This document shows positions 1,647-45,047 of a stretch of 64,000 nucleotides of DNA, piece by piece. The notes beneath the pieces were generated by a model. It was not told the origin of the DNA, searched no databases, and saw only the letters and a program-made list of their open reading frames with translations. The translations under genes were made by a program, and so were the position numbers. The stretch spans positions 9,006,291 through 9,070,290 of the forward strand of contig OZ020515.1 of assembly GCA_963971425.1 (NCBI GenBank). The letters run 5' to 3'. Within the stretch, counting starts at the first letter, position 1; every line of letters begins with the position of its first letter. The DNA comes from Bryoerythrophyllum caledonicum (taxonomy: Eukaryota; Streptophyta; Bryopsida; Pottiales; Pottiaceae).

Positions 1647-1884
1647 TTAACCCCTAAAGGTCACGTTCTTTACTCTTAGATTCAAAGAAAAGTACATGAA
1701 AGATGTCAGTTGAGGATTCTTCAATCCAATAATGATCCACATCTGAAATGTCATGTGTCATGGATAGAGCTCAACACAAATACAAACTTTTGTATCTATT
1801 GTCTACATCAATTCTTACACCTTGTATATCAACTACACAGAAAACATCATGTCAAATCTGGCTTCTCAAACCTCAAAGGGTTAA
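1647..1884. mobile_element. Short TTAA-bounded MITE-like element
   Basis: The left end is TTAA-CCCCTAAAGG and the right end is CCTCAAAGGG-TTAA, a degenerate version of the end sequence used by the larger elements in this window. The interior resembles the sequence just after 15058 (a shared 'ggtcacgtt..ttactctta' block) but not the 950-bp family, so it may be a second subfamily. The right TTAA supplies the stop codon of the minus-strand gene at 1881-2006. Confidence 0.4.
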
Positions 1885-2006
1885 CTGAACATGAAATTGC
1901 ATGCTGAAATGGGTATGTATGCAGATATACCGGCCTCGTGACCCAGGCTCTGTTTCGTTGTCGGTGGTTTCCACTTCGAATCTCCGCCATCCCCCATGGT
2001 AGCCAT
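1881..2006 (-). CDS. GDGGxSKWxPP peptide, one motif unit (41 aa)
   Basis: ATG at 2006 opens a 41-codon ORF that begins MATMGDGGDSKWKPPTTK, followed by an unrelated tail of about 23 residues with two Cys-free helical-looking stretches and one Cys near the end. The motif unit GDGGDSKWKPP lies at residues 5-15, the same distance from the initiator Met as in the related genes at 3464, 23892 and 44868. That shared spacing is the reason for choosing this start. There is no signal peptide or membrane segment. The stop is TAA (1881-1883), inside the TTAA of a neighbouring MITE; if TAA were read as Gln, the frame would run a few codons further to a TGA. The family is unrecognised and function is unknown. 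Confidence 0.55.
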   Translation of the reverse strand: MATMGDGGDSKWKPPTTKQSLGHEAGISAYIPISACNFMFS

Positions 2007-2548
2007 GAATGCCCTCAAATGCAGAAGCCGCACCAGCCGAGAGAATCTATTGCAAAATGCTGATCAGTTTGGGCAGAGTAAACTTAGCAAGGTTCCGCTC
2101 AAAATAGAGATTTGTAGAATTGTAAGGACGTGGAGACTAATGTGATACCAGTTGTATAATTCATGGTATGGTTTCATCGTGTATTTGTACCCCTTGCAGC
2201 GATGTCTTTCTGGTAGATTTCCTGGCACTACTGGTTTGAATTCCAGTTTGTCGATTATCATGACCATCATCGCGTTGCAGCTCCTTTCCAAATCAGATGC
2301 CGGAAGCGCCCACTTTGAAACTAAGAATTTTCCTGTGATCAGAAACTGCTTCCGGAATTTCAAGTGCTCCTTGAATTCCATATCCACTGTTGCGAGCGAG
2401 CGTGCCAACTGGATTTTCTCGGATATGATTGCTGCTGGCGTCGACACGGCCATGAATTCACTAACCAAAGTCGATCTTCATCAAAAACTGAACCCCCCAA
2501 ATTTAGTTTTTACGAATAATATATTAAAATAACCCGTAAGGTGAAAGA
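2007..2548. other. Upstream region of the 1881-2006 peptide gene; unassigned ORFs
   Basis: A minus-strand ORF of 134 codons (2064-2468) and a plus-strand ORF of 126 codons (2152-2532) overlap antiparallel. Neither matches a family I know. If the peptide gene at 2006 is transcribed leftward, this stretch would be its promoter and 5' leader. Confidence 0.3.
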
Positions 2549-2764
2549 TTAACCCCTAAGGCATTTTAGAGGAATCTCTGCTCCATTGATTAAAAACCTC
2601 TAAGATGAACTTTTTGAGAATATAATCGTAGGATCTTCTTCTAAACTTATATGAGATGATGTGGTAAAACTTTTGTGAATTTCGACCGTCAAAATTGATA
2701 TATAATCACAGTCAAAGTAAAAAAAATTGTCCCCCAAATAGGCACTTGGTCCTTTAGGGGTTAA
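2549..2764. mobile_element. piggyBac-like MITE, 216 bp
   Basis: The left end reads TTAA-CCCCTAAGGC and the right end GGTCCTTTAGGGG-TTAA, so an inverted terminal repeat of about 10 bp is flanked on both sides by TTAA. A TTAA target duplication with C-rich tips is diagnostic of the piggyBac superfamily. The interior is AT-rich and non-coding. Confidence 0.6.
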
Positions 2765-3300
2765 ATATTGAGAACCTCCATCTGCTGCCACGTGGAAGAA
2801 ATTTGTGACTTGACCAAGGTTCTGCCGAAAGGTAAACTTTGTCGATTAGTGCGGTCTGACTCAGGAGACCGCACCAATTCTTGACTGAAGAAGGAATGAA
2901 TTAGTAGGAAGGTGCAACACCAGGGCACAGAAATTCTTCCAGGTTTCACTCAATTCAAAATCGGTCAGAGTCTCTTCAAAGTTGGCAGGTTCCACAATTC
3001 TCCTTTCCCACCTGCCAACGAATGGATACCAGGATATATTGCCCAGGCTGTTCGTCGTTGCCGACTTGTCATGTAACTGCTTCTGTAGCTGCTCGTCGGC
3101 CGATGCGCAGCTGCAGGTGTTCGGGAATTTCAAACATTCAAACACGATCCTCCTCACGAGCCTAGAATAGGGAATTCGGATCGTCAGCGGTCAAACATTC
3201 ACGGCACGGACTCACTTGCTCAGGTGTCGGGAATTCATGTATCTACTGATCTCTGCGTCGGCCTTACGCATTTCTGCATTTACCACCAACTTCCATGCAC
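2765..3300. other. Unassigned region with a 98-codon minus ORF
   Basis: A minus-strand ORF at 2861-3157 (98 codons; contains CSCASADEQLQKQL and FVGRWERRIVEPANFEETL) has fairly normal composition but no motif I recognise and no GDGG unit. It lies divergent to the peptide gene at 3464, so it may be leader or promoter DNA. Confidence 0.25.
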
Positions 3301-3307
3301 TATAAGA
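3301..3307 (+). promoter_or_regulatory. Candidate TATA box for the 3464 peptide gene
   Basis: The string TATAAGA lies 163 bp upstream of the ATG at 3464. By eye only; the spacing is shorter than the 216-225 bp seen at three related loci. Confidence 0.35.
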
Positions 3308-3463
3308 TGGACGTCCACGGTGAACTTCCTCAAAGCAATCTGATCAGTGATCATATCATCAATCATCATTCTAGTTCTGCTCCCTGCTTCTAGCTTGTGC
3401 CTTCTTTGGGACTGTAAATTGCGTCAACTCTTTGATTGAGTTACAAGTCCTTCAACAACAAGA

Positions 3464-3616
3464 ATGGGTGCTTTTGGCGATGGAGGTGATTCGAAGTGGA
3501 AGCCCCCGAAGCGATCATCTAACGATGGGGAAGTCAGGAACACGTTCAAGCTGGTTGATTATCATGATGCTTGTTCCTTCGGTCCACTTGAGGCGGTGCT
3601 ATCGATTATCCACTGA
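3464..3616 (+). CDS. GDGGxSKWxPP peptide, one motif unit (50 aa)
   Basis: ATG at 3464, TGA at 3614-3616. The product begins MGAFGDGGDSKWKPPKRSS, then continues as a mixed-charge tail of about 30 residues with one Cys and a hydrophobic C-terminus. The motif unit sits at residues 5-15, as in the other family members. There is no signal peptide. A candidate TATA box lies at 3301. The ORF is open in a different frame over a longer span (3432-3719), but only this frame carries the family motif. Function is unknown. The recurrence of the same N-terminal block at unlinked loci with different tails argues that it is selected. Confidence 0.6.
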   Translation: MGAFGDGGDSKWKPPKRSSNDGEVRNTFKLVDYHDACSFGPLEAVLSIIH

Positions 3617-4437
3617 TTTTGTGCAGAGATCCATCCTGAGCATTGTAGGTACTCGGCCCAGTAGAAAACCATTCTTTGGTAGACTACTAAAATGTCCGAA
3701 TTTACTCATTCTTCCGTAGACATTTGAAAATAAGACGGGTTTATCTATGCCCTTGTACAAATTTTTAGGCACAATGCCTAGAAAGCAATTTAATTACTTT
3801 TCCTGAAGGAACTGGAATGTTTCACATACTTGTAACAGACGAAAATCTTGTTTTGCTGGATGAGTACGTGCCTAATTATTTGCTGGTTGTGAGACGGATG
3901 TTTAAGTTGAGGTTTGGAACTTACTGAGGGTGCATATACAGTATTTACATGAATTATAAATTTGCGCGCTGCTTGATATGTAGTATGTGGTACTCAAGCA
4001 CGAAGACTAGAAGGCGTTGTTACAACGATTCAAGTACATTGAATGATCAGAAAGTGTGGAAGTTGAAATTGTTGAGTTGGCCGCAACATTCGTAAGGTCG
4101 CCTATTCTACAGCTGTGGTACACCTTTTGATTATGTGAAGTGATGAAAATCGACGTTTTCAGCTTCTCATGAGGACTTTTTGGAAGTCGAAACAGCAGAT
4201 TCAGATTCGGAAGGTGCCAAGGTGGGCCATCAAATGATAGTATGTAGGGCCAAACTGGTGAATTCGTGACTCAAAAGTTTCTGAAATGTTTGAAGTGCCA
4301 GTACTTTCTCTCGAGAAGCGAATCGAGCCAGTACCTGGGAGTTTGTCTGGGAGTTTGTCGTGGGGTTTGTCTAGGCATTAGAGCATCCGCAACAGAAGTT
4401 CGGCCAACAGGAAAAACGGGAATCGACCGGGTTTAAT
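3617..4437. other. Intergenic DNA, nothing recognised
   Basis: AT-rich to mixed sequence with no ORF over 60 codons that I can support and no clear repeat ends. A short direct repeat ('gggagtttgtctgggagtttgtcgtgggg') occurs near 4340-4365. Confidence 0.4.
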
Positions 4438-4508
4438 TGAATAAATTTTTTTTTATTTTATTTTTTATTTTTTTTTTTTTAAAATTTTTTTTTTTTTTTT
4501 TTTTTTTG
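4438..4508. repeat. T-rich low-complexity tract
   Basis: About 70 bases composed almost only of T and A, on the side of the following decayed piggyBac-like copy. It could be a degraded poly(A) tail of a minus-strand retroelement. Confidence 0.6.
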
Positions 4509-4539
4509 GATTCATGGTTTGAAAGTTAGTACCACTCAA

Positions 4540-6604: not shown

Positions 6605-6853
6605 CTAGGATCCTGGCACTCTAATTAACCTCAACTCTAGCAAACTATTTTCATTCTTATCAGCACCAGCTCCGCTCGCAAACCGTGCGCTGAAATTCCA
6701 GGCTGCACGTCTCTCCACGTCGAGCTTGATTTCTTGAACCAACGTCGCGCGCTCCTGTTTTATTCCAGACTCACTCAGCAGATTTGTAGACTTAGAACAT
6801 CTTTGTTGAGGAGGCTTCCACTTGGAACCACCTCCATCTCCTGCAGTACTCAT
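6605..6853 (-). CDS. GDGGxSKWxPP peptide, one unit with long tail (82 aa)
   Basis: The ATG at 6853 gives MSTAGDGGGSKWKPPQQR, with the motif unit at residues 5-15 exactly as in the other members. An ATG 15 codons upstream (6898) is in frame but would break this spacing. The tail of about 65 residues is charged and Gln/Glu-rich (IKQERATLVQEIKLDVERR), possibly helical, followed by an Ala/Gly-rich stretch. There is no signal peptide. The stop is TAG at 6605-6607; were TAG sense, the frame would run about 25 codons to a TGA. A possible TATA (TGTATAAAATG on the minus strand) lies near 7190. Function is unknown. Confidence 0.55.
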   Translation of the reverse strand: MSTAGDGGGSKWKPPQQRCSKSTNLLSESGIKQERATLVQEIKLDVERRAAWNFSARFASGAGADKNENSLLELRLIRVPGS

Positions 6854-7309
6854 TTGCGCTTGAATAGGTGAAATTTCTAGAGTTTGGTAGTGCAACAAAC
6901 AAGGAGCGGTTACAGTTTGTGCTACCGCTTATCGCAGAACATGAATCTCATCTTGAAACTTCTCTTGTTAAATACTTGATGCAATGTGGAATGAAGTAGA
7001 GTTACATTGGGAGAAGCTTGTTCAGCACTTAATTACCTTCGCAAATTCAATGTGACCTAGGAAGTATTTGAGATGTCTTGACAGACAAGTTTTTGCATCA
7101 GATTCCGGAATCTTGAGACTAGTACCTGTGATGGATTAGCCTGGAACGACATTGACAATGATGGCGACAACTGAGTCTAGGATTGCAACATTTTATACAT
7201 GGCGGTAGGCTCGTTGCAAACAGTGATCACGACGAATTTGAAACTTTAAGTTGTGTGTATTCCGGGGAAGTTGCAGAAATCGAAGCTGTTTTTTCAACAG
7301 GCTTGTCGA

Positions 7310-7716: not shown

Positions 7717-8669
7717 TATGACCCCTAAGGTACCGAGACAATTTTACACCAAAAACACTTCAAAATTAATGGGTTCTAGTGCAATGAATTAATAAGGTAA
7801 CAAAAACTTTGATTTTTAGTTCTAACCGTAGGGTCTCAATAAAGGCTTATTAAGTAATACATGTACAAAATTTCATAAACTTTGACCGCACAGATTGAAA
7901 GATTATAGTGTTTGAAGTCAAGCAAATGGTTCATTTTCTTCCCTGCGTTTAGTGGATCAGCAAACTTTGACTTCAGTTGGTGTCAAAAAATTTCACTAGA
8001 CAAGGTCTAAATCTATTACCATCTTGTTAAGCATGATGTTAGCTCCTTACACACCAATTTTTAGAGGTAGAGATGCGGTGTAGCATATTCAAAACAAGTG
8101 TGCAAGGAGTGGAGGCTCAAAATTTGTTAATTCACACTTTAATTTTTTTTTAACTTAATATGTTTTTGATTGATAATCCGAATGGTCAATAAGAAGGTTT
8201 AAATTACATATTGTTGTGGAAAAAATAAAAAGTGAAAAATATAAAGACGCCTAGGTTTTATGTGGAAAAGAAGAAGTTTTTTTGGTACCTTGCCCGACAA
8301 TGAGTGACAATGTGTGAAAATGTTTGACTTGGGTTGGTATGCTATTTTTCACTAAAGACAAGACTTTTTTTTGACAATATGAAGGGAAACAATACTACTT
8401 GCGAGTACTGAAAATCTCACTTTCAATAGAGTGTCCTGTCAAAAGTTTTTGGAGGTGCCCGAGGTGCCCGCCCTCCCCATTTAAAATTCGAAACCCTATA
8501 ACTTTTTCATTAAATATCCAATTTAGGAAAAAATTGTTTTCCCATTAAGGTCTTGGTAATGTCTTTCTATAGTAAAAATTTCAAAGAAGAATGTTGGAAA
8601 TTGACACTATAGGAACCTGACCGAACTTTCAAAAAGCCCATTTTTGACACTTGGTACCTTAGGGGTTAA
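7717..8669 (+). mobile_element. piggyBac-like non-autonomous element, about 950 bp
   Basis: The left end is ACCCCTAAGGTACC preceded by a degenerate TTAA, and the right end is GGTACCTTAGGGG-TTAA, giving a 14-bp inverted terminal repeat. The interior is non-coding and shares long blocks with 11677-12630, 34325-35267 and 46109-47047, for example 'ataaactttgaccgcac' and 'gcgtttagtggatcagca'. No transposase ORF is present. Confidence 0.7.
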
Positions 8670-9855: not shown

Positions 9856-9904
9856 ACAATACACTAAGAGACACAAACAAATTCAAAAATTTCGTTGTGA
9901 ACAA

Positions 9905-11676: not shown

Positions 11677-12630
11677 TTAGCCCCTAAAGGCCCGAGGCAT
11701 TTTCACACCAGATACACTTCAAAACTGCTCGTTCTAATGTGATGAGTAATGTGGTAATTAAAACCTTTTATTTCCACATCTAAATGTAGGATTAAATTGA
11801 GACTTGTTGATTAACATCCTCAAAAAAATTCATAAACTTTGACCGCACGGATTGAAAGATTACAGTGTTTGAAGTAGAAAAAACTATTCATTTTCTTCCC
11901 TGCGTTTAGTGGATCAGCAGACTTTGACTTCACTTGGTGTCAAATTTTTGCACTACACAAGGTCTGGAAACATTACCATCATGTTAATCATGATGTTATT
12001 TCCTTGAACACCATTTTTAAGAGGTAGGGAAGGGGTGTAGCGTAATCAAAACAAATGTGCAAGGAGTGGAGGTTCAAAAACTGCCAATTCACGTTTGATT
12101 TTTTTTGTGATCTATACATGTTCTAGAATGATAATCCAAATGGTCAATAAGAAGGTTTAGACCACATCTTGTGGTAGAAAAAACAAAATGTAAGAAATAT
12201 GAAGATCTCTAAGATTTATGTGGAAAAGAAGAAGTTTTTTTGGTACCTTGCCCGACAAAGTGTGACAATGTGTGAAAATGTTTGACTTAGATGATTATGC
12301 TATTTTCCACTTAAGACAAGAGAATTTTTTTGACAATATGAAAGGAAATTATATTATTTGCTAGTGTTGAAAATCTCACATTCAATAGAGTGTCATAGGA
12401 AAAGTTTTTGGAGATGCCCAACGTGCCCGGTCTCCCCATTTGAAATTCATTAACCCTACAACTTTTTCATAAAATGTTGGATTTAGCAAAAAATTGGACT
12501 CACACAAAGCTTTTAGCAATGTCCATCTACACTAGAAATTTCGAAAAGGAATGTTATAAATTGACACCATAGGAACCTGCCCAAATCTTCGAGAGTACCC
12601 CGAGGGGACTCTTGGGCCTTCAAAGGTTAA
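11677..12630 (+). mobile_element. piggyBac-like non-autonomous element, 954 bp (reference copy)
   Basis: It begins TTAG-CCCCTAAAGGCCC and ends GGGCCTTCAAAGG-TTAA. It is the most complete copy of the family and shows all shared interior blocks in order. There is no ORF of note. It is useful as the reference for aligning the other copies in the window. Confidence 0.7.
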
Positions 12631-13249
12631 ACGGAATTCCGTGTATCCAACCCCAATTTTGTGGGCGAGAATACTATTTCAAGATGGGGAAATGTCTCTA
12701 TTATTGAACTTGCATTTTAAGTTAAAAATAGATTATGGGCTTGGCAAGGGGGTTGGCATCCTTCACATTTTGTTTGAACACCCGACCTTGCATTGACAGT
12801 CATGAAGCATGTGAGTGATCTGACCCCGCGAAATATGACAGATCGGGTTCCACTATACAGTAACATAAGCGCAGATGAACTTTGCTGGCCCACAGCTGCA
12901 ATGCTGCACAAATCATCACCAGGTATTGAAAAATTCCTGGAAATGCCAGAACGTATTCCAACGCCAAATCACGGGGATTATTTCAGCGCAGACAGATCAG
13001 GTAACATAACGACGAACGTGCAGGTGAAGCAAATGCGTTATGAACGGACTTGCCGAGCAAGTAACCATCCTCTCACAAAGTTCACGTGATTATCCTCCCC
13101 TTGACAGAAATGACCGCGCCCCCAATCTTGAAGCAAAGGTAGCGTCTATTGAACCCGAACTACGCAGCTTCACGTGACACAGTATAATTTAGTGTTAGGC
13201 AGACGCCTACTTTTTTGGAAAACTAATGAAATGACTCAAAAGAAGAAGA
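12631..13249. other. Intergenic; one unassigned 98-codon ORF
   Basis: A plus ORF at 12793-13089 (contains HVSDLTPRNMTDRVPLYSNISADELCWPTAAML) has balanced composition, but I recognise no family and find no GDGG motif. It lies between two transposons and may be a host-gene fragment. Confidence 0.3.
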
Positions 13250-14054: not shown

Positions 14055-14812
14055 TTAACCCCTAATTTTCCAAGGGTCCCCTTGGGGACTGTTGAAGGTT
14101 TGGGCAAGTTCCTACGGTGTCAGTTACTAATACTCTCTTTGAAATTTTTATCGTAAATGGACATTACTAAAAGCTTTGTGTGAGTCGTATTTTTACATAA
14201 ATTTGACATTTAATAAAAAAGTTATAGGGTTTTAAAGTTCAAATAGGGAGAGCAGGCACATCAGGCAACTCCAAAAGCTTTTGCTAGGACACTCTATTGA
14301 ATGTGAGATTTTCAATACTAGCAAGTAATATTATTTTCTTTCATATGGTAAAAAAAATCTCTTTTTTTTGGTGGAAAATAGCATATTAACCCAAGTCAAA
14401 CATTTTCACACATTGTCGCACATTGTTGGAAAAGGTACCAAAAAATCTTCTTGTTGTCCACATAAAACTTAGAGATCTTCATATTTTTTACTTTTCATTT
14501 TTCCCACACCATTGAGAACCTTTTTTTTGATCATTTGGATTCTCATTCTAAAACATGTTAAGTTCACAAAAAAAATAAAAAGTTAATTGACAATTTTTGA
14601 ACCTTGCACATTTTTTTTGAATATTCTACACCTTTTCATTATGTCTAAGAATTGGTGTACAAGGAACTAATATCATGCCAAACACGATGGTCATGAATTA
14701 AAACCTTGTGTAGTGCAAAAACTAGACACCTAGTGAAGTGAAAGCTTGTTGATCCACCAAACATAAGGAAGAAAATGAACTATTTTCTCTACTTCAAACA
14801 CTACAAACACGC
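14055..14812 (-). mobile_element. Truncated piggyBac-like element
   Basis: TTAA-CCCCTAATTTTCC at 14055 is followed by the family interior in reverse order. The copy stops at about 14812, inside the block that normally precedes the far terminus. Confidence 0.6.
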
Positions 14813-22333: not shown

Positions 22334-23712
22334 TAATGAAGGTACAAAACATATAGTGACAAAATTCTACTCCAAACTTTTCTGTTAGTCTATCCAAACC
22401 ACCTTATCACGACTTATCTATCTGTTTAGCTAATTACGATTACTTGGGATGCGCTAAGAGGAAAAAATCAACTCATTTTTTACCCTGGCGGGGTCTGCCT
22501 GGACCTCCTGTTTGTTCTCCCCCTTTCCTTTGCTGTAAAGGATCTCTTTACATGTAAAAAAAATTAAAAAATTAAAAAATAAAAAACTCATATTTACTGA
22601 TTTAAGGAAAACTTTAATATCAGGATGACGTTCAGTTGTTAAATTGAGAAACGGTTTCACTGAATTTACAGGTCACCTAATTGCCCTGCCTCTCTGGTCC
22701 ACGAACTTGTGGATTGACTTTCCTGGCTTGTGGAGGCTACACGAGCACGGATCCAAGTGTGTGGCGCAGTCGGAACACGGTTTTCAATCAACAATCCTTC
22801 ACACTGGACTGACTTCCACACAGGACGAGTCGGTAGAGTCGGATGAATCAAAAGCTGAAACACTTTCACTCCGAAAAAATCGATAAGATGAGAAAACATG
22901 CTCATCTCAAATCGAAGAATCCTCAGCTTGGCAGAGAAACTGGTATCATTTCAACATTCTTCTTTGCTACTAGCTAGAATTCCTCGTCAGAATTACCGGC
23001 AGAGATCTTGGTGACAAGAATTCTATGTGGAAGGACATCCAACGGCAGAATTTTCTACCACATTCTTCTGATAATCACACACTAAGGAAGGAATGACCAG
23101 ATTGCGTGCAAGTACATCACCACTGCAACGCGAGTGCAGCTTATCCCCAACTAGTCAATCATCTCTTCCAAGTTGAGAAGGCTTGATTTTTGAGACTGCA
23201 GTGCCTTGGGATGTAAAAACGCCATGACAAGTGAACTGAGTCAAGTTAGAGCTGCAGCTTTTATGAATCACAGCAGACGAGATTTATAAAACGCAGGGAC
23301 TGAGTATCTTACAACCAAGAATATCCTATGAATCGTTTTATGTACAAACTGAATCTATACAAAGTAGGCCCTGCCCCTGCGGTTCAATAAACCACGGCCA
23401 GTGTGTCCTCCAAATCGTTTGTAAAAAAATGGGGTGAGGGTAATCATGTAAGACTAAACCCGCGACCGGTGAACACTAAGCATCCACTGGTTCAAGATCG
23501 AAAAGGGTATTGAAGTCGCCAATGTTCTTGAGAAAGAATTCCGGCAGCCCTTCAATAAGTGCTATGCTTGTCGCACCGGTCGATCAATCTTCGTCTCTTT
23601 CCTGGAAGAAATTCTCAGCAAAGAAGTGTATGGATCGGTTGCGGGGCCTTTGGTTGAGAGGCGATATTTTCCGCTCCGTTGGATGTACTGATGTGTTGGT
23701 TGCCTCTCTCGA

Positions 23713-23892
23713 TCAATTGATTGCTATTGAATCTCGTCTTGAAAAAGGTCTCCACTTGGAAGAGCCGCCGTCGCCCATCGGCGCGGCCTTCGAAGGAGGC
23801 CGCCACTTCGACGCGCCACCATCGCCGAGAGGACTCCGAGACTTGGACGGAGGTCGCCACTTGGATGCGCCACCATCGCCGAGAGCAGCCAT
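23713..23892 (-). CDS. GDGGxSKWxPP peptide, three units (59 aa), arm A copy
   Basis: ATG 23892 to TGA 23713-23715. The first unit is MAALGDGGASKWRPPSKSRS; two more follow (LGDGGASKWRPPSKAAP and MGDGGSSKWRPFSRR), with a short tail DSIAIN. Unit spacing is about 17-18 residues. The protein is tiny, basic, Trp- and Pro-bearing, with no signal peptide or Cys. Upstream in-frame codons lack an ATG, which fixes the start. Its counterpart in arm B (44868-45047) differs mainly at silent sites and one Ile/Phe, so both copies look constrained. A TATA box lies 216 bp upstream. The tandem layout resembles precursors cut into repeated peptides, but no processing site has been shown. Function is unknown. Confidence 0.75.
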   Translation of the reverse strand: MAALGDGGASKWRPPSKSRSPLGDGGASKWRPPSKAAPMGDGGSSKWRPFSRRDSIAIN

Positions 23893-24101
23893 TGTACTGC
23901 AACAAGAGCCTTTGTTTCCGCAATCAATGAGTTCTAGAGCAGTCGCTACAAGTAACTTTGTCAGATTCTAATTGTATGCTGGTGTGAGCAACAATCTGTA
24001 TGATTGCCCAGTTGCTCTCGACGATCACCTGAAGAGCGCTTTGAACGAGCTAGCTGATTCAAGCTGATGAGGAATGTTTTGAATCCTGTGGCGAGGGGTT
24101 C

Positions 24102-24108
24102 ATTTATA
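24102..24108 (-). promoter_or_regulatory. TATA box of the arm A peptide gene
   Basis: On the minus strand the sequence reads TATAAAT, 216 bp upstream of the ATG at 23892. The same element at the same distance precedes the arm B copy, and a TATA box 225 bp upstream precedes the four-unit gene. Confidence 0.55.
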
Positions 24109-24549
24109 CATCCTGGAACGCGTCTAAGATGGGACCCTGTGCGCCGTGGCAGACAAGACAAACAGGTAGAGATTACAGACGCAGCTGAGGAATTGAACGC
24201 TAATTCAAAGATGGAGTCATGATGTGAATATTCGTGCTGGAGAACGCGAATTTGTATCGTTCTTCGACGACCCAGAAGTGTATTGTTTGACACGAGCTCC
24301 CTTCAAAGGATGGCGGAGCGGGAGCCTTTCAACGAAGGTGTTGGTGAAAGTATCCAGGAAGTTCGAACACAGAAATACTCGGGAAATTGGTTTCAGTCCG
24401 GACGCCACCTGGCGCTGGAGCCCACTTCCGTATACCACAGCAGCTTCAATATTGACTTTCCTTGAGCTGACTGAATACCATACTCTTTAGGAATCAGGAG
24501 GGAATAATGTCGGCTGGGTGAGTAAAATATATTGTCTGAGCCAAAGTTG

Positions 24550-25690
24550 CTCTGCTGAGATAATGGTGTCATTTTTAAAGGTAAAATCCTGTGCGTAGAC
24601 CGTGGCCTGGCCTATCAGCTCGTGCCTTATACCTTGTGTTCGCCTTTGATGTGGCACTTTAACTTGAGCACTGACTGGCCACAAGGTGAGGGAGGCACAG
24701 AAAGGTTGGAGACCTATAACCACCACGAACCCCATAACGGAGAAGCTAAAGTGGACTAAAACCACCACAGACCCACCCCATTTCCGAAATTTTAGGAAGT
24801 CATTTATGATTGGGTGTTAGTTCATGATTGGTTCAAAGCTGCCGGTTTTTAGTCAATGCAGAAGTGGTTATTAGTACAACTTAGTGTGGAAATAGAGAGT
24901 TGTGTATGTCGAGGAATGGGTCACAGCTTACTATCCACTTTGAAAATTTGTAGCAATTTCAATATGAAGAAATAAATGGTCACGACAATTGCAATATTCA
25001 TGAAATCCTATTTTGAATTCCCAAAAAATGTCTTACCACGTATACAAACACTATAAATAGGTCAGCAAGCTTAAGTTGGTGGTTATAGGTCATCCAACTT
25101 TATTGAGGTCTTAGATGTTCTCTAAGGCGGCACTGACCTTCGCTCCGTCTTCCACGCATTTTGTGCTTCTTGTGATGTTGATAGCATCTCCTTATTGACC
25201 CTGGTTGAGCGTTGCACCAAACCTCAGCCTCTGGTGGGTCCATTTTTTTGGCCCTACTTGTTTTAGGATTCTAGAGGCATTTTTTGGAGTTTTTTTGGCC
25301 AAATTTGGAGCTTCTAGCCCCTATGACCTGGCTAGGGCAAATTGACCCCCTCGTTGGGACTTACCTGAGGTGGGCCCCGTCTTAATTGCATGGGGTCATT
25401 TTTTAGACCCTCTTATTTTGGGGGGTCCAGAGGCTTTTTCATTTTATTTTATTTGACAAATTTGGGGCCTATGGCTATTGTTTTCCCAGAGGACCCTCCT
25501 TTTCTATAAATAGGTCCCCATCCAAAAACAAAATAGGGGCCGGGTTTGGCCCAACCACCTTGTGGCCCCATGCGGTAAGTCCGAGCGTGGGGATATCCTG
25601 TCAAATCGGGTCAATTCGCCCTGGCCGTCAGTTCCCCCTGAGCGAGAGTTTTGGACAAACTTTACTCCAGTTAATTCTGTTCGGTAAAAA
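24550..25690. other. Arm A-specific insertion, unclassified
   Basis: About 1.1 kb absent from arm B. It contains 'ctataaatagg' words twice (near 25050 and 25505) and GGGGCC-rich patches but no ORF or inverted ends that I can support. Confidence 0.5.
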
Positions 25691-26167
25691 ACAACAGGAG
25701 GGAATTTTGAGGAAGGCCAGGGAACTTTCGCGACCAAGATCCAGGACTGAGGACGTTAAAAGCCATGATGGAATTTGCAGTGGGTCCACTCCAAGCTTTT
25801 CGGGTGTGGGAAAATGACGCCCGGGGTTTTTTCGTGACGAATTCCCCCGACAAGATGCATCTTCCCTGTAGCGCGCATGTCAAACTGGAGTCGTTCCGCT
25901 TCCTTGCGCACCAAGAATGTTCAGGTTTTAACCTTTCAGGTGGACTCTACCGCTATTTGGCACATTCCCATTAAGTGTGATAAACTGTGGTGCAAGAATG
26001 TCACTCCGCCACCCAGGTGCCGACTTTCCCTCCAAACTTGCCAGTCAAGCCAACCAGTTCAGTACATAAGACATGCCTTTCAGGAACAATTCCCAGGACG
26101 AGAGTTGGGAGTGATTGATCACTACACCGCATTTGGTTTTCTGCCCGAGAATTACAAGCTGTGGAGA

Positions 26168-26227
26168 ATGGATTTCGAGGGAGATGGAGGGAACTCGAAG
26201 TGGACACCACCACGTACTATCAGGTGA
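26168..26227 (+). CDS. GDGGxSKWxPP one-unit peptide or exon (19 aa), arm A
   Basis: ATG 26168 gives MDFEGDGGNSKWTPPRTIR then TGA. The frame is also open upstream for about 97 codons (from 25877), so this could be the end of a longer product. The stop overlaps a consensus splice donor (ATCAG|GTGAGG), so it may instead be a first exon. In the arm B counterpart (43614-43673) the ATG is ACG while the motif is intact, arguing for either loss of that copy or an upstream start. Confidence 0.4.
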   Translation: MDFEGDGGNSKWTPPRTIR

Positions 26228-26646
26228 GGGCGGAGCTTTCACCATCGCATTACGAGCTAGGGATGCTGAATGGGAAGCTGTTCTCAATCAGTTTCGGACA
26301 TCACCAATTAACAGCGGCTTCCTGATGTGTTTAGTTGGACCATCTTTCTTGCGCACTAGCATATTATCGAGCTGCTTTCTTGATTGCAGCTGTAGAATGA
26401 CTTCTCCTGTACATTTTAGTCTGAAGCTATTAGTTTTCCATTTTGTAGAAAAATGATCATCAGGAGCAGAGCTTTCAGAAAGAGAACATTTGTATTCCGC
26501 ATGGTGTGCTTAGCAAGTAAATCTGGCAAGATATCGCATTCATTCCGTACATTGTTGATTTTTGTATTTTCAGTTCAAGATGACACATATTATGTGACTG
26601 TGTATGACAATTCAAATTCTACGATAATTCTTAAAGTGACAATGCA

Positions 26647-27199
26647 CTACACTAAAATTTATGTTTAGTGTAGTGACTAAAAGCGAACCTATACACCAAT
26701 TGCGAACGAGGCATTTAGTGTAGTGACAAAACCCTACACTAAATGCCAACTACTACACTATTTGTCAATGGTAGTAAAGATTTCAACATAATTTTTTTCG
26801 CTTGTGCACATTTAGTGTATCAATAGTAGAAGTATTAAAAAAGGTCCAGCAGTCGAGGGCTATCAGAGTATCTTATCAGCAGCTTTCAATTGGCCACAAC
26901 TCATTCATTATAAATCCGAATTGGACATATGAGGTGTTTTTTTGGCATCTACAGAAAATGTAGATGCTAAAAAACACCTCATTTGCCCAATTTGGACAAG
27001 TTTTGAATGAGTTATGACCATTTGAAAGTTGCAAATGAAGAGAAGCATGGGTTGGATTGATGGGGGATTGATTGAGGTTTGAGTGAAGGTTACATTAATG
27101 ACATTGGTAGCTAACTCCAATTGTCAACTTCTTTACAAATAGTGTACTAGGGTAAGTACACTATTTGTACCACTACACTAAACATAAATTTTAGTGTAG
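26647..27199. mobile_element. Inverted-repeat element with 29-bp perfect TIRs
   Basis: Bases 26647-26675 (CTACACTAAAATTTATGTTT then AGTGTAGTG) are repeated exactly, inverted, at 27171-27199. Each TIR is itself nearly palindromic (CTACACTAAA ... TTTAGTGTAG). Further ACACTAAA/TTTAGTGT words and an internal hairpin near 26930-26965 follow. No clear target duplication is seen, so the superfamily is open. Confidence 0.7.
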
Positions 27200-27303: not shown

Positions 27304-28853
27304 CAATGGCAAGCAAAAGTTTTTAGCAATGGGGCATCTCTGAAATCGGTGTTGACTATAGCGTAGTTTGTGGAATAGTAAGAGATATTTTGGGCCAGCT
27401 TTAAGTAGTACACCACATGGCACCTAATTAACATTGACTCCCTCAAAATTTGCCAGTTGTAGTGATTATACATGCAAAAATCATGAAGGGGTGTGTACAA
27501 CTTAATATGCACATATTAAGTTGTACTCACCACTATCTTCTCATTACAAGAGCACTTGTAAGGCTTTTTATTTTGGATTTTTTTGGTAAGATTTGGAGAG
27601 GCTTAGGTGATATGCTATGGCTCCTAGAAGGTCTAAGAATCAACAAAGGGCAGTTCTTGAGATGTATGAGCAAGGCAACTCATATGGCCAAATTTCTGCA
27701 ACTTTGGGCATTCCTCAAAGCACTTCTTATGACATAGTGCGAAGGTTTCGTGAGAGAGAGAGCCTATCAAACAAGACTTTATCTAGTAGACCTAGAACTC
27801 TTTATGAACGTGATGATCGTGACATTGTGAGGAGATTAAATTATCAAAATACAAGTACAACGGCAGCTATAGGAAGAATGTTACGATCTCAGGGCATGCA
27901 ATTAAGTGATGATACAGTCAAAAGGAGTCTTCGAAGGCAAGGGTTGAGAGGATATGTAAAGACCAAGAAGCCACTTTTGACAAAGAAACATCAAGCTCAT
28001 CGTTTGGAGCTGGCAAAGAAGTGCAAGCATGCAGATTGGGAGTTTTGTGCTCATGTCATTTTCTCAAATGAGTCCAAATTCAATATTTTTCGCTCAGATG
28101 GGTGTCAGTATTGTTGGAGAAATAATGGAGAATGTCTTTCAGGTTAGCATGTGCAATCTACAATCAAATATAGAGGAGGAAACATATTGATTTGGGGTTG
28201 TATGAACGGGAAGGGATTGGCAAGCTCCATTTGATTGAAGAGAAGATGAATAAATATGTTTATTGCAACATTTCAGAGATGGAATTTATGGGCACTATAC
28301 AGATGCAAGGTTGAGAAGAGGATGAGGTTATTTTTCAAAGCGTGAAACTGATTTTGTGATGTACATATGATTTTCCAAAGCATAAAACTGATTTTGTGAT
28401 ATACATATGATTTTCCAAAGCAGAAAACTGATTTATGGGAAAAGATCTAAGAAATTTGGTACAATATAAAGGCTGATGTTGTTAGGAAGTTGATACGCTT
28501 TACGCCTTGAAGAGCTCTTGATGTCAACCAAGCAAGAGGTGGCTACACACGGTGGTGGTTTTTGTGAGTGCTTATGAGTTGAATCATTGAATTGTAAAGT
28601 TGTTTAGTACTCTACTGTCTTGTTTTCTATGGTTGATATGCAATAAAAATCAGTTTGAGCGTAAAGAATCGTACAAGCTTGTTGCACATTTGAATTATTG
28701 TCTGTTATTCTAGTTCATATTTTCATTGAAAGCTTTCTTCTTTATGCTTGTTGCAACTATATGCGATTGTGGTTGTGTTCTTCCTATTTTATAAGAGTTC
28801 ATGTTAGATTTTCCAAAAATCTCCTCTTGTACGACTATTTATGCTTGCCACTG
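27304..28853 (+). mobile_element. Tc1/mariner element, complete ends, TA target duplication
   Basis: The left tip CAATGGCAAGCAAAAG and the inverted right tip CAGTGGCAAGCATAAA form TIRs of about 14 bp. Each is flanked by TA (27302-27303 and 28854-28855), the hallmark of Tc1/mariner insertion. The insertion lies inside the copia LTR, so it is younger than the copia element. Downstream of the transposase remnant, about 28335-28435, three copies of a 47-bp unit ('gattttccaaagca.aaaactgatttt') occur. Confidence 0.85.
27617..28147 (+). pseudogene. Mariner-like transposase, N-terminal half, inactive
   Basis: The ORF encodes a paired helix-turn-helix DNA-binding region (residues about 1-115: MAPRRSKNQQRAVLEMYEQG, then GQISATLGIP and IGRMLRSQGMQLSDDTV) and the start of the DDE catalytic domain. 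The first catalytic Asp is replaced: the block reads VIFSNESKFNIF where the family has an Asp before Glu. A TAG at 28145-28147 ends the ORF; the same frame continues past it with recognisable YRGGNILIWGCM. A frameshift follows and the later catalytic residues are missing. It is therefore dead by several independent lesions. Start at 27617 is the first ATG and matches the usual family start. Confidence 0.8.
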
Positions 28854-34324: not shown

Positions 34325-35267
34325 TTAACCCCAAAATTACTGACAATTAATAATACACCCAAGAACACTTCAAAACTGCTCGTTTTAGTGTAATGAGTAA
34401 GGAAGAAAATAAAACATTTGTTTCTAGTTTAACCGTAGGATCTAAATTAAGACTTCTTAGGTAACATACTCACAAAATTTCATAAACTTTGACCATGCAT
34501 ATTGAAAGATTGTCGTGTTTCAAGTACAAAAAACAGTTCATTTTCTTCCTTGCGTTTAGTGGATCGGCACACTTTGACTTCCAATTTTTGCACTACACAA
34601 GGTCTAAATCCATTACTATCATGTTAAGCATGATATTAGTTCCTTGTACACCAATTTTTTGAGGTAGAGGAAGGATTTAGCATATTCAAAAAAATTGTGC
34701 AAGGAGTGGAGGTTCAGAAATTGTCAATTCACGTTATATTTTTTTGTGAACTTAGTATGTTTTAGAATGAGATTCCAAATGGTCTACAAGAAGGTTTACA
34801 CCACATAATTCTGTGGGGAGAATAAATAGTATAAAATATGAAGATCTCCAAGTCTTATGTGGAACGGAAGAAGATTTTTTGGTACCTTGCCCAACGATGA
34901 GCAACAATGTGTGAAAATGTTTGACTTGGAATAATATGTTATTTTTCACTAAAGACAAGAGATTGTTTTTAACAACATGAAAGGAAATAATATTATTTTC
35001 TAGTATTCAAAATCTCACATTCAATAGAATGTCCTAGCAAAGGTTTTTGGAGTTGCCCGACATGCCCACTCTCCCCATTAGAACTTCAAAACCCTATAAC
35101 TTTTTCATTAAATGTTGGATTTAGGAAAAAAATTGACTCACACAAAGCTTTTAGTAATGTTCATCTACAGTACAAATTTCATAAAAGAATGTTATTAAAT
35201 TGAAGAATAGGAACTTGTTCGAACCTTCAGAAGTCTCTGAGGGATCTCATGGTGATTTAGGGGTTAA
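34325..35267 (+). mobile_element. piggyBac-like non-autonomous element, 943 bp
   Basis: TTAA-CCCCAAAATT opens and GATTTAGGGG-TTAA closes a copy of the 950-bp family in the same orientation as 11677-12630. Interior blocks occur in the same order. Confidence 0.7.
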
Positions 35268-36336
35268 AGGACCAAGTGTACGTGGGGGTACAAATCAAAA
35301 TTGGGCAGTTTCTTAAAAATCCAATTTCGATGATAATTTCTTGAAATTTTTAGCGAGAAAAGGAATACAAATTATCTTAGCAGGAATTTTTTTAATTTTT
35401 TTGTGGACTTATAGGCTTAAAGTTATAGTGCTTCAAACATAAAAAGCTCGACTTTGAGGGAAGTGGGTAAGGTCCTATAGAGACAAATAGTAGTATTGTA
35501 GAGTTGACTATTGCACTATTTTGGGGCGGGTAGTAGAGAACAAAAAATTTGGGCAACCTTCATTGTTTTCACTTAAAACGCATAGAAATTAAGAAATTTA
35601 CTTTTTTAATTGTTAGAATAAGTCATAATAACTCTATCCATCATCTGGATTTTAGATCCAAAAAATACTCTTTATTTTAAAAATAAAAATGCTTTCCTGA
35701 GTGAAGGGCCACTCTTTATTCCCCTAGTCATTGCAAGTCCATACCTCTTATTCTAAACATCTCCATTACTTGTCGTTTTGGCTCTGTAGTGACCTAATAC
35801 AAGGTAGAACATAGATCTCTAAAATTTATGCAATGTGGAGTGTAAATATATACGGTTATCTTGAGTCAAAGTATGCTAAACTTATCCGCGCAAGCAAGAA
35901 AAAAACTAAATTGCATTCTTCAAATGCGTGTATCTTAGTATCTATGCGGTCAAAGTTTACAAAATGTTCGGAGTGTGTCCTTGTAGTAGTGAACTTGAAG
36001 ATCCTACAGTTGAAAATAATTAAAAAAAAATGTTCAAATTAGTCTTGCAATGTCTCATCTTAGAGAGGCAATTTTAGGGTGGTTTTGGTGAAACATGGTC
36101 TCAATCTTAGGAATTAAGGATGTAGTTCTTAGTCATGTCCGGCATTGCACAGTTTGATGCCTCAAAGGTCTTATTCTGGTCCACCGGTGACTGATTCTTC
36201 CAAATTGAGCAGCCATTTTTTTCTTTCGACAATGAGTAGCGTGACAAGTATTGAAGTTACGTTTTTGTCTTGAAAGACCTTGGATTAGGGACATAAAAAT
36301 GGTAAATAGAGCTAAGTTCTTTGGAATATTTGTGCC
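35268..36336. other. AT-rich intergenic DNA
   Basis: No supportable ORF. A TTAGGAATTAA word at about 36108-36118 resembles the degenerate outer end of the element at 46109-47047, so part of this stretch may be a further decayed transposon. Confidence 0.35.
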
Positions 36337-41514: not shown

Positions 41515-42146
41515 GTCCGTAAGTCCGTTAGTTTGACGATTTTCCATCCTTACAGAGTCCGTCCACTCTTGTTATTGCCATACTTACACTACACTTTATG
41601 AGAGAACAATGATATTATCTTGAGTGACAGAGATATCAACAAGTGAGTTTGACTTGGGAAATCGATTTCAAGCCTTTTGGGTGATAATTTCAAGGTGTGC
41701 TAATATCAAGGGTGATATCGTCATTGATATTATCCTTTTGTCGAAAAAGGTTAGACTATTCTTGCTTCATTTCCCACTCTCGTGCTTTCCCATTCTTGCT
41801 TCTTTGTTGGCCCTCGGGCTTGACCCTTTTCACACTTGTCTCGTTGTTTTGACGAATAAAACCCGATCATTGGGTTTCTCATGAAACGACAAAATCCAAC
41901 GGGAACAGAAAGTGCTCAGAACTCTGGGAACCTGAGTTCGAACTTGAACTAACGGTTTTACATCCGGATGGCGACAAAGATATCATTCATCCAGGATCGG
42001 GATGTCAAATTCGGGTACTCGTCGCCCGGAGACGCAGATACGAGCTTTGACGCGCTTCGACGAATACCGACGACGGCCCCGTTAGCAACTTTGACCAAGA
42101 AACCAGCACGCTCTGGACAGTCAAAATCCTAAACTGCTCCAGCGCC

Positions 42147-42154
42147 ATATAAAG
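42147..42154 (+). promoter_or_regulatory. TATA box of the four-unit peptide gene
   Basis: ATATAAAG starts 225 bp upstream of the ATG at 42372, close to the 216-bp distance seen at the two three-unit genes. Confidence 0.55.
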
Positions 42155-42371
42155 CCGATGAAGCTTCACCAATTCCTCAAACACAACAGCTTCATTCCAT
42201 CTGATCTCAGCTACGTAGCAGACAGATCGCTTGTCCAGACTTTCAGTCGAGACTCGACGCTTCAACCTTTCCGGACATACTAAGCCATTTCTTGGGTCGA
42301 GATTTTTCATTCGAATCCGTGATATACATCCTAGCATAGCATTTTTGCATTCCTCGACAATCAGTCTTGCA

Positions 42372-42602
42372 ATGGCTGGTGAAGGCGACGGAGGGTCATC
42401 CAAGTGGAACCCGCCCTCGTACACCGGCGATTACGACGACTGCGAAGGGGACGGTGGCTCGTCGAGGTGGAGGCCTCCCTCGCATCACGCCGAGGGCGAC
42501 GGCGGGTCGTCCAGGTGGAAACCTCCCTCGCACTGCTGCGGATTCGACGTCAGCTGCGAAGGCGATGGAGGGTCGTCAAAGTGGAGGCCAGGAAAGTTCT
42601 GA
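42372..42602 (+). CDS. GDGGxSKWxPP peptide, four units (76 aa)
   Basis: ATG 42372 to TGA 42600-42602. Units in order are MAGEGDGGSSKWNPPSYTG, CEGDGGSSRWRPPSHHA, EGDGGSSRWKPPSHCCG and CEGDGGSSKWRPGKF. Between units are short Asp/Tyr/Cys/His-rich spacers (DYDD, CCGFDVSC). The first unit begins at residue 5, as in the other members, so I reject the 47-codon upstream in-frame extension. There is no signal peptide. Unlike the three-unit genes it has four Cys, all in spacers. The gene is GC-rich against AT-rich flanks. The last unit ends PGKF with no proline pair. Function is unknown; it is the longest member seen. Confidence 0.75.
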   Translation: MAGEGDGGSSKWNPPSYTGDYDDCEGDGGSSRWRPPSHHAEGDGGSSRWKPPSHCCGFDVSCEGDGGSSKWRPGKF

Positions 42603-43079
42603 GATCAAGCAACTTCTCAAAGAACATCTCTGTACAGCGAACCTCGAAACGAAACAAGAATCTCTGAATCTTCTCTTGAAGACCCGTACATTGCTGAAGC
42701 ATCGACCCTCGAAGTGTTGATCATTCCTTCAGCAAATTTGAGACTCTTGGTGATTTATTTTCCGGCGCGGTCATTCAGACTTGGTGAATTACCGCAGCCG
42801 AGAATTCCGACATTCGGAGTAGGAAGTAGAGTTACAGCGCTTACACACTTACCATTCTTTTGGGAGCCTGCATGCGAACCCCCAATACATAGATTAGTCA
42901 CATTCTTTGGGTCCAGGCCAATTCCGAATTGGTGATATACAGAGACCTTAATACCAGTGAAAACCATGTTATTACCAAATTGTCTCTGGTCCAACATGGT
43001 ATCTCTTGTAAATTCCGTCTTGGAATGCAATACATAAGTGGTCAAAGCACATTAGATCTGGTATTAGCAGTGCATAAAT

Positions 43080-43184
43080 GAGGTTGCATGCTGTACCAAG
43101 AATCTTAGCTGACATCCTTCTCTTTGCGGTGGATTAATGAGGATGCATGTTGTACCTATACTCTTTGCTGACTTCCTTCTGGTG
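43080..43184. repeat. Two-copy tandem repeat, about 58 bp
   Basis: Two copies of 'gaggttgcatgctgtacc...gctgac.tccttct' lie head to tail, the second at 43139-43184. They border arm B of the inverted duplication. Confidence 0.6.
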
Positions 43185-43613
43185 ATCATCTGGTGCATTG
43201 TCAATTTAAGGATTATCGTAAAATTTGAATTGTCACACACGGTCACATGATATGTGTCAGCTTGAACTAAAAATACAAAAATAAAAAATGTGTGGAATGA
43301 AGGCATTGTCTTGCCAGATTTACTTGCTATGCACATGACGTGCGATACAAATGTTCTCTTTAGAAAACACTACTCCAGATGATCATTCTCTACAAAATAG
43401 GAGTCTAATAGATTTCAATATCATGTACAGAAGAAGTCAATCCATCAGCTGCCATCAGGAAGCAGCTCGATATGCTTGTGCACACCGGAGATCGTCCAAC
43501 TAAACACATCCGGAAGCTGCTGCGAATTGGTGATGTCCGAAACCGATTGAGAACAACTTCCTGATCAGCATCCCCAGCTTCCAACTCGAAATGCTATGGT
43601 GTAAGCTCCTCCC

Positions 43614-43673
43614 TCACCTGATAGTACGTGGTGGGTTCCACTTCGAGTTCCCTCCATCTCCTTCGAAATCCGT
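43614..43673 (-). pseudogene. Arm B copy of the one-unit peptide, start codon lost
   Basis: It aligns base for base with 26168-26227. The codon at the start position is ACG, but the motif EGDGGNSKWNPPRTIR and the TGA plus splice-donor-like overlap (ATCAG|GTGAGG) are kept. In the frame upstream a TAG lies where arm A has a Tyr codon. Confidence 0.5.
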
Positions 43674-44651
43674 CCTCCACAGCTGGTAATTCTCAGGCAG
43701 GAAACCAAATGCGGTCTAATGATCTATCACGCCCAACTCTCATTCTGGAAATTGTTGCTGAAAGCCATATCTGGAGATGGTTGGCTTGACTGGCACGTTT
43801 GGAGGGAAAGTCGGCACCTGGGTGGTGGAGTGACGTTCCTGCACCACAGTTTATCACAGTTAAAGGGAATGCGCCAAAAAGGAGTGGACTCCACCTGAAA
43901 GGTTGAATCCTGAACATTCTTGGTGAGCAAGGAAGCGGAACGACCCCAGTTTCGCATGCGCGCAACAGGGAAGCTGCAAATTGTCGAGGGAATTCGTCAC
44001 GAAAAAGCCCGGGTGCCATTCATATCATGCCGAATTCCCACAGCCTAAAAGCTTGGAGGGGACCCCACCTCCAATTGACCCAAACTCCATCATGGCTTTA
44101 ACGTCCTCAGTCCTGCCTCTGGGTGGTGAAACTTCCCCTGAACTTCCCCCAAACTTCCCCCAAACTCCCTGTTGTTGATTTTTTCAAATTGAATGTCAAA
44201 GTAAAGCTCGTCTAAAAATCTCACTCAACCCTAGTTTTATAATCGAAGCCAATCACTTCCACCCTGGTCCTTGCTTGCGGGGCACCATTTTCTCCACCTG
44301 AGAAACTATTGGCTCAGTCAAGATAATTTACTCACCCTGTCGACATAATTCCCTCCTGATTCCTACAGAGTACGGACTCCGAAGTGTTTCTGTGTTTAAG
44401 CTTCCTACATCCTTTCACCAACACTTTCGTCGGAAGGCTCCCCCTCCGCTACCCCTGGAGGGAGCTCGTGTCAAACAAAACAAGTATGGTCGTCAAAGAA
44501 CGACACTGGTTCGCGTTGTTCTGCACGAATATTCACATCATGACTCCATCTTTGAATTAGCGTTCAATTCCTCAGCTGCGTCTGTAATCTCTACCTGTTT
44601 GTCTTGTCTGCCACGCCGCACAGGGTCCCATCTTAGACGCGTTCCAGGATG

Positions 44652-44658
44652 TATAAAT
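44652..44658 (+). promoter_or_regulatory. TATA box of the arm B peptide gene
   Basis: TATAAAT, 216 bp upstream of ATG 44868, conserved in sequence and spacing with arm A. Confidence 0.55.
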
Positions 44659-44867
44659 GAACACCTCGCCACAGGATTCAAAATATTCCTCATCAGCTTG
44701 AATCAGCTAGCTCGTTCTAAGCGCTCTTCAGGTGATCGTCGAGAGCAACTGGGCATTCATTCAGATTGTTGCTCACACCAGCATACAATTAGAATCTGAC
44801 AAAGTTACTTGTAGTGACTGCTCTAGAACTCATTGATTGCGGAAACATAGGCTCTTGTTGCAGCACA

Positions 44868-45047
44868 ATGGCTGCTCTCGGCGATGGTGGCGCATCCAAG
44901 TGGCGACCTCCGTCCAAGTCTCGGAGTCCTCTCGGCGATGGTGGCGCGTCGAAGTGGCGGCCTCCCTCGAAGGCCGCGCCGATGGGCGACGGCGGCTCTT
45001 CCAAGTGGAGACCTTTTTCAAGACGAGATTCAATAGCATTCAATTGA
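44868..45047 (+). CDS. GDGGxSKWxPP peptide, three units (59 aa), arm B copy
   Basis: ATG 44868 to TGA 45045-45047. The product is the same as that of 23713-23892 except for one residue in the tail (DSIAFN versus DSIAIN); other differences in the coding region are silent, for example CCC for CCT. Preservation of all three units in both arms, with only one replacement, supports selection on the protein. The preceding in-frame codons lack an ATG. A 5'UTR acceptor-like string 'cttgttgcag' sits four bases before the ATG in both arms, so an intron in the leader is possible. Confidence 0.75.
   Translation: MAALGDGGASKWRPPSKSRSPLGDGGASKWRPPSKAAPMGDGGSSKWRPFSRRDSIAFN

What the first reader, a model, noticed from the sequence alone, without database searches (positions are those of the whole stretch)
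1881..45047. A dispersed family of tiny genes encoding GDGGxS[K/R]WxPP peptides in 1, 3 or 4 units
Seen: eight loci (1881-2006 -, 3464-3616 +, 6605-6853 -, 23713-23892 -, 26168-26227 +, 42372-42602 +, 43614-43673 -, 44868-45047 +) carry 15 copies of GDGGxS[K/R]WxP[P/F/G]. In the full-length members the unit begins four or five residues from the Met. Tails differ; the core does not. The three-unit copies in two duplicated arms differ by one residue. None has a signal peptide. I know no plant peptide, RiPP precursor or domain family with this core. Inference: the tandem layout fits a precursor cut or modified into repeated short peptides (Trp and Pro-Pro could be modification or binding sites), or a multivalent SLiM protein.
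Basis: partly seen in the sequence, partly recalled or inferred. Interest (0 to 1): 0.92.

Follow-up and report, generated by a model that had tools for sequence, protein, structure and literature searches.

The report
Moss family of repeated tryptophan-peptide genes
A plant genome, very probably a moss, carries many copies of tiny, apparently undescribed genes that each encode one to four repeats of the same short tryptophan-containing peptide, which evolution has kept almost unchanged, perhaps for a stress-related job that is still unknown.

Summary
In detail: 15 copies of GDGGxS[K/R]WxP(P/F/G) at the eight places named. The genome has 93 matches to the unit pattern against 0 for the reversed pattern: 60 in one 550-kb stretch, 27 on three unplaced contigs, 4 on C11, 2 that look unrelated. 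It is a real protein-coding family. Between distant members four-fold third positions are saturated (331 of 438 differ) although the peptide is intact. In the four-unit gene the coding part is 93% alike between subgroups, the leader 55%. The three- and four-unit genes look free-standing, mostly with TATA box and first-AUG start. A Physcomitrium patens 'Predicted protein' (A9U494) has three units, and unnamed public sequences belong too, so this is a moss family or wider. One of the eight (43614) has no ATG and looks decayed. No Pfam or PDB relative was found among the members tested; AlphaFold sees disorder. Five of eight four-unit promoters examined share a CGCG / CCGAC / TTGAC / TATA order, as in stress genes. 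Best guess: a stress-induced, disordered multivalent docking protein; main rival, a cytosolic precursor of damage peptides like prosystemin. No expression data were available.

The parts
1881..2006 (-). one-unit gene, 41 aa, MATMGDGGDSKWKPP...
3464..3616 (+). one-unit gene, 50 aa, MGAFGDGGDSKWKPP...
6605..6853 (-). one-unit gene, 82 aa, MSTAGDGGGSKWKPP...
23713..23892 (-). three-unit gene, 59 aa
   Evidence: 98% like the copy at 44868 over 691 bp
24103..24108 (-). TATA box (TATAAA) 216 bp upstream of the ATG of the three-unit gene
24118..24123 (-). CGCG box (ACGCGT), 15 bp upstream of the TATA box
26168..26227 (+). one-unit ORF, 19 aa, MDFEGDGGNSKWTPPRTIR; doubtful gene, ends in a CAG|GTGAGG splice-donor-like sequence (read by eye)
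   Evidence: two sister copies lack the ATG
42050..42055 (+). CGCG box (ACGCGC) in the promoter of the four-unit gene
42066..42071 (+). ACCGAC (DRE-like core)
   Evidence: name recalled
42091..42096 (+). TTGACC (W-box-like)
   Evidence: name recalled
42148..42153 (+). TATA box (TATAAA) 224 bp upstream of the ATG
42372..42602 (+). four-unit gene, 76 aa
43614..43673 (-). one-unit remnant, ACG in place of ATG; probably not translated
44637..44642 (+). CGCG box (ACGCGT; with the next base CGCGTT), 15 bp upstream of the TATA box
44652..44657 (+). TATA box (TATAAA) 216 bp upstream of the ATG
44868..45047 (+). three-unit gene, 59 aa

Best explanation
Shown: a moss (or wider) gene family of short ORFs that encode small proteins without a visible secretion signal, built from 1-4 copies of GDGGxS[K/R]WxPP, the first copy a few residues after a Met; the three- and four-unit members look like free-standing genes with their own core promoter. 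Inferred: transcription is switched on by stress through a CGCG (CAMTA-type) / CCGAC / TTGAC promoter, and the protein stays inside the cell as a disordered, multivalent linear-motif ligand. Each unit presents the K-W-x-P-P face, with the flexible GDGG before it, to one conserved pocket of a partner protein; the number of units and the spacer length set the avidity and which partners are bridged. Gene amplification in the 550-kb region sets the dose.
For: Distant copies keep the peptide while four-fold sites are saturated. In the units collected the constant part is G-D-G-G-x-S-[K/R]-W, with PP less strict (the collecting patterns required most of the core). Unit number varies 1-4 and spacers vary between subfamilies. 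No constant residue flanks the unit, as expected of a motif that is bound rather than cut. The model of the four-unit protein is disordered (mean pLDDT 52.9, pTM 0.14). No Pfam family (1 of 12 members scanned, E 0.053) and no PDB sequence. TATA box and a presumed leader without upstream ATG in five of seven four-unit promoters and both three-unit genes examined, no downstream ORF beyond chance in 13 of 15 genes. The full promoter element order is shared by five of eight four-unit copies examined.
Against: No partner, expression or protein evidence. One-unit members cannot be multivalent. Within the four-unit genes spacers are as constrained as cores, which a bare SLiM string would not need. 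The pLDDT comes from a 12-row alignment and is weak evidence. The stress reading rests on short motifs, and the names DRE and W-box are recalled; three of eight four-unit promoters lack part of the order, the copies are related, and the one-unit and C11 genes lack the order.
Confidence: 0.42

Rival explanations
1. Cytosolic precursor of repeated damage or stress peptides, working like prosystemin or PROPEPs: made without a secretion signal, released on wounding, cut into unit-sized peptides and seen by a surface receptor.
For: Prosystemin and PROPEPs lack a signal sequence, and Peps are thought to be released on damage (passages of PMC6547358). Stress-type promoter order (CGCGTT as the CAMTA3-bound rapid stress element, passage of PMC10417383). 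Repeated near-identical units in P. patens. Public relative P0001 reads ...WRPPSKRD..., recalling the PPSKRD in tomato systemin (recalled, probably chance).
Against: No constant cleavage-like residue at the unit edges; the first unit sits near the Met in the members read, whereas Pep epitopes are C-terminal; spacers conserved within the four-unit genes.
Confidence: 0.25
2. Precursor of a modified (RiPP-type) peptide in which the Trp is cross-linked or otherwise modified.
For: Repeated short cores with Trp, as in multi-core plant RiPP precursors (passages of PMC11253845).
Against: No visible secretion signal or leader; that review says plant RiPP precursors often have signal peptides. Whether BURP cyclases lie near was not tested: the search of the genome did not complete.
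Confidence: 0.06
3. Conserved upstream-ORF peptides that regulate a main ORF.
For: Tiny conserved ORFs; for two of 15 genes examined the longest ORF in the next 1.5 kb is above all 50 shuffles (1u-C11b 124 aa against at most 94; four-unit L042 132 aa against at most 107).
Against: For the other 13 of 15 it lies within the shuffles. Repeats of 3-4 units are not a uORF layout.
Confidence: 0.03
4. Nucleotide-level conservation only (structured RNA, or gene conversion of the repeats) with no selected protein.
For: Within the four-unit genes synonymous sites differ less (pS 0.16) than the flanks (leader 45% different); the region is rich in inverted duplications.
Against: Between subfamilies four-fold sites are saturated while the peptide is intact; RNA fold z-score only -1.30; no Rfam match in the window at gathering thresholds.
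Confidence: 0.06

Closest known systems
Physcomitrium patens A9U494 (UniRef 'Predicted protein', P0011)
   Same: Three units with the same core: MAIRGDGGSSKWRPPSKCQMGDGGSSKWRPPSKTPMGDGGSSKWRPPSKRQMAWEDN at its C-terminus; a member of this family
   Different: The deposited model has 162 further residues in front; I read the Met four residues before the first unit as the likely start (inference)
Prosystemin / PROPEP damage-peptide precursors
   Same: No secretion signal, stress-type promoter, short peptide epitope (works-like only)
   Different: No sequence homology shown; epitope repeated and first copy near the N-terminus here; no evidence of cutting or of a receptor
ST / DUF2775 proteins and (split) burpitide precursors
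   Same: Plant tandem repeats of short peptides (ST proteins seen in the listing; burpitides in passages)
   Different: No match to these families in the 12 members scanned with Pfam; no visible signal peptide; core does not resemble the burpitide cores that I recall

Membership tests
GDGGxS[K/R]W moss family (with P. patens A9U494) | core GDGGxS[K/R]WxPP, 1-4 copies, first copy near a Met | tested here: met
   43614 lacks the Met
GDGGxS[K/R]W moss family (with P. patens A9U494) | protein-level selection | tested here: met
   omega 0.20 in 11 distinct four-unit coding sequences of 20; saturated four-fold sites in copies with intact core; units chosen by the pattern
GDGGxS[K/R]W moss family (with P. 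patens A9U494) | transcribed and translated | not testable with these tools
   no RNA or protein data held
Prosystemin / PROPEP-type precursors | no N-terminal secretion signal | tested here: met
   by eye only: polar, Gly-rich N-termini; no signal-peptide program available
Prosystemin / PROPEP-type precursors | sequence homology to prosystemin or PROPEP | tested here: inconclusive
   protein searches returned none, but with length limits and a capped candidate list; not compared pairwise
Prosystemin / PROPEP-type precursors | induced by wounding; peptide released and perceived | not testable with these tools
   promoter motifs only
Burpitide (RiPP) precursors | BURP domain in cis (fused type) | tested here: not met
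   no BURP match in 12 members scanned, of which 2 are window genes
Burpitide (RiPP) precursors | separate BURP cyclase nearby (split type) | not tested
   search not answered
Any Pfam family | match over cut-off | tested here: not met
   12 members scanned, best E 0.053 in 1 of 12; the one-unit window genes were not scanned

The most novel reading that the evidence does not exclude
A bryophyte family of stress-induced, signal-less, multi-copy peptide precursors: a moss counterpart of systemin/PROPEP danger signalling that evolved on its own, with the number of peptide copies per precursor and genes per cluster set by amplification.
Probability: 0.2. Interest if true: 0.85.

Novelty: new variant of a known kind. 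Interest (0 to 1): 0.62.

Why it matters
It is a strongly conserved and heavily amplified peptide family that annotation appears to miss (the only relative with an organism name that I found is one P. patens 'Predicted protein' with a doubtful start). Being in the model moss P. patens it can be tested directly by knock-out, reporter and synthetic peptide. Either outcome is informative: a new Trp-centred docking motif with an unknown partner, or a danger-peptide system in non-vascular plants.

Tried and rejected
uORF reading: rejected as the main reading, no downstream ORF beyond chance for 13 of 15 genes. RNA-element reading: z-score -1.30 for the four-unit coding part (the only one folded) and no Rfam match in the window. 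Antisense ORFs (163 aa opposite the three-unit genes): thought unlikely, because in the four-unit cores variation lies mostly at sense third positions (0.013, 0.055, 0.104 for positions 1, 2, 3); not tested on the three-unit genes themselves. A shared neighbour gene between the C2 window and 20 kb at the C11 loci: besides the units, matches only in what looks like repeat sequence (LINE-like by my reading of the ORFs, no domain search). C2:2490343 and C2:3218773 (GDGGQSQWQP) are not counted as family: no Met in the open frame, different surroundings. C4:30344591 (E 1.9): no unit on reading. Weak protein hits P0008-P0010 (E 0.14 to 8.9) are not counted. Two C1 places match only the 3' flank of the three-unit gene. 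Literature: searches with six unit words found one unrelated paper; A9U494 is in no held paper; a general search and searches on moss peptides, CAMTA, danger peptides, burpitides and phytocytokines were seen as listings. Passages only were read of PMC10838073, PMC10417383, PMC11371470 (all from its reference list), PMC6547358 and PMC11253845. The idea that all eight loci are genes is rejected for 43614.

Caveats on counts: one search uses 13 units chosen by hand from 9 genes; eight of the nine core positions were required by the pattern that found them ([K/R] as a set), and units ending in PF or PG were left out, so its '20 of 657 residues differ' is low by construction and only the saturation of third positions carries weight. 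One search also collects units by a pattern; its public set of 17 includes one string with an alignment gap. One search uses 6 subgroup representatives of 20 copies; one search uses 11 distinct coding sequences of 20; searches use 7-8 of 20. In one search three genes (2u-C11, 1u-C11b, 3u-L055) were started one to a few codons late. One search scored only the 7991 candidates sharing most words.
Full report
What is there. The 15 units stand at the eight places named. In the genome (437 Mb, 894 contigs; window = C2:9006291-9070290) the unit pattern has 93 matches and the reversed control none: 60 in C2:9.008-9.557 Mb, 27 on unplaced contigs C112, C855 and C863, 4 in C11:24.145-24.149 Mb, and 2 unrelated-looking places on C2 (GDGGQSQWQP). 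A shorter pattern (112 against 5 in the control) adds C9:9637839, which reads MENFEGDGGASRWRVNVTMKLGDGGGSKWHS. C11 holds a two-unit gene and two one-unit genes.

Which organism. It is a plant: three rbcL matches of two types. Of the 17 first-numbered contigs, 13 are 20-65 Mb long. The rbcL looks bryophyte-like to me (recalled), and the one relative with an organism name is from Physcomitrium patens. A moss is the likeliest host; this is inference.

Is it coding? Among 13 units from 9 distant genes, four-fold third positions differ in 331 of 438 comparisons, which is saturation, although the peptide is intact. The matching count of residue changes (20 of 657) is low by construction, since the units were found by a pattern that required most of the core. 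Free of that bias, DNA search with the four-unit gene found 22 loci: 15 on C2 and 7 on unplaced contigs, which may be extra copies or duplicates of assembly. On C2, 13 of 15 are open from ATG to stop, one of these shortened to three units with changed second and third units; one has a premature stop, one matches only from the middle on and has lost the units. The 7 unplaced copies are open. Among 11 distinct coding sequences of 20 the pooled pairwise dN/dS is 0.20, core 0.196 and spacers 0.188. In six subgroup representatives the coding part is 93% alike with 0.4% gaps, the leader 55% with 33% gaps, the first 250 bp after the stop 65% with 23% gaps. Synonymous sites (pS 0.16) are thus also more alike than the flanks, so gene conversion or some nucleotide-level constraint within this subgroup is likely as well. 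The three-unit gene has three full copies, 95-100% alike.

Gene form. The two three-unit genes of the window have TATAAA 216 bp before the ATG, the window's four-unit gene 224 bp before. Of seven four-unit promoters examined, five have no ATG between the presumed start of transcription and the coding ATG; two do (L043 minus strand, whose only TATA-like CATAAAAG lies 494 bp upstream with ATGs in between, and L056+2575, with an ATG at -132 and CATAAAAG at -285); an eighth copy (L056+7308) shows no TATA-like site in 700 bp. The starts stand in a CAATGG or CCATGG context. Chances of such ATG-free stretches in shuffles are 0.007 to 0.16 each, and the copies are related, so this is supporting only. 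Downstream ORFs are of chance size for 13 of 15 genes examined. The one-unit genes have upstream ATGs within 200 bp and mostly no TATA within 400 bp, so their transcription is less sure. The 26168/43614 subgroup is mostly decayed: two of its three copies have ACG for ATG, one also GDRG; the unit is 55-56 of 60 bases alike against 88% in the 200 bp upstream and 80-86% in the 150 bp downstream.

Promoter. Of eight four-unit promoters scanned, six have [A/G]CCGAC followed by TTGAC[C/T] and a TATA-like CATA(A/T)AA(A/G), and five of these have a CGCG box in front, in the same order; two of the five (L042, L047) are close relatives. The three-unit genes have ACGCGTT 15 bp before the TATA box. Expected numbers per 700 bp from the window are 0.35 (CGCG), 0.25 (CCGAC type), 1.16 (TTGAC type) and 0.49 (TATA), so single hits mean little; the ordered conservation among otherwise poorly alike upstream regions means more. 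(A/C)CGCG(C/G/T) and CGCGTT are CAMTA3 sites (passage of PMC10417383); the DRE and W-box names are recalled. The one-unit and C11 genes do not show the order.

Relatives. A single-protein search gave two relatives; a profile search gave P0001-P0007 at E 1.3e-15 to 4.2e-3 from sources marked ena, jgi and lgn, without organism (one is called 'hypothetical protein'). A longer query gave P. patens A9U494 (E 4.4e-13), P0012 with the same units (E 1.1e-12), and P0013 at E 0.48, accepted on reading because it holds GDGGPSKWNPP and GDGGDSKWKP near its Met. P0003 and P0012 run on through a Trp where their relatives stop; I suspect a TGA read as Trp (inference). No Pfam family in 12 members scanned, no PDB sequence. 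The database includes UniRef entries and no seed-plant protein appeared, but tiny proteins are under-annotated, lengths were limited to about 33-105 and 129-411 residues, and only the best 7991 candidates were scored.

What it does. Not shown. The constant G-D-G-G-x-S-[K/R]-W with mostly PP, changeable neighbours (E before the unit in 17 of 27 own and 6 of 17 public unit strings) and changeable copy number in a disordered chain (pLDDT 52.9) is what a docking motif looks like, and the promoter suggests stress use. The rival with most appeal is a precursor of damage peptides: prosystemin and PROPEPs also lack a signal sequence (passages of PMC6547358). I prefer docking because no residue next to the unit is constant.

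Amplification. Copies lie in both orientations. L041 and L045 are inverted and 98.9% alike over 3.7 kb; C863 repeats C2:9.22 Mb at 99.8% over 9 kb. In the window itself 22638-24382 and 25700-26647 are inverted duplicates of 44379-46105 and 43193-44159 at 88.3% and 82.5%.

Noticed in passing
G000 contigs C821, C590, C894 (L059-L061): Two different rbcL types in one assembly, on contigs of exactly 95,000 (C821) and 115,000 (C894) bases, the latter type also on C590 (19,464): perhaps plastid DNA of a second plant.
   Followed up: no
window 22638-26647 and 43193-46105: Inverted duplicated arms at 82.5-88% identity carrying the three-unit and one-unit genes.
   Followed up: partly
window 7722-8628, 11677-12634, 14055-14803, 34354-35270, 46100-47022: Dispersed repeat of about 900 bp, roughly 75-83% alike, unidentified.
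   Followed up: no
window 62340-63140 (+): NIF/SCP-like phosphatase domain (PF03031, E 3.9e-16).
   Followed up: no
window 27611-28147 (+) and 49243-50205 (-): Tc1/mariner-like transposase part (PF01498, E 2.1e-13) and a DUF7869 ORF (PF25273, E 3.5e-36).
   Followed up: no
window 55108-55602: 27-bp tandem array, about 19 copies, open in one frame as repeats of LDSIESFF.
   Followed up: no
four-unit genes (window 42372-42602 and its copies): Synonymous sites (pS 0.16) are much more alike than leader and 3' flank: coding-part gene conversion or nucleotide constraint, unexplained.
   Followed up: partly
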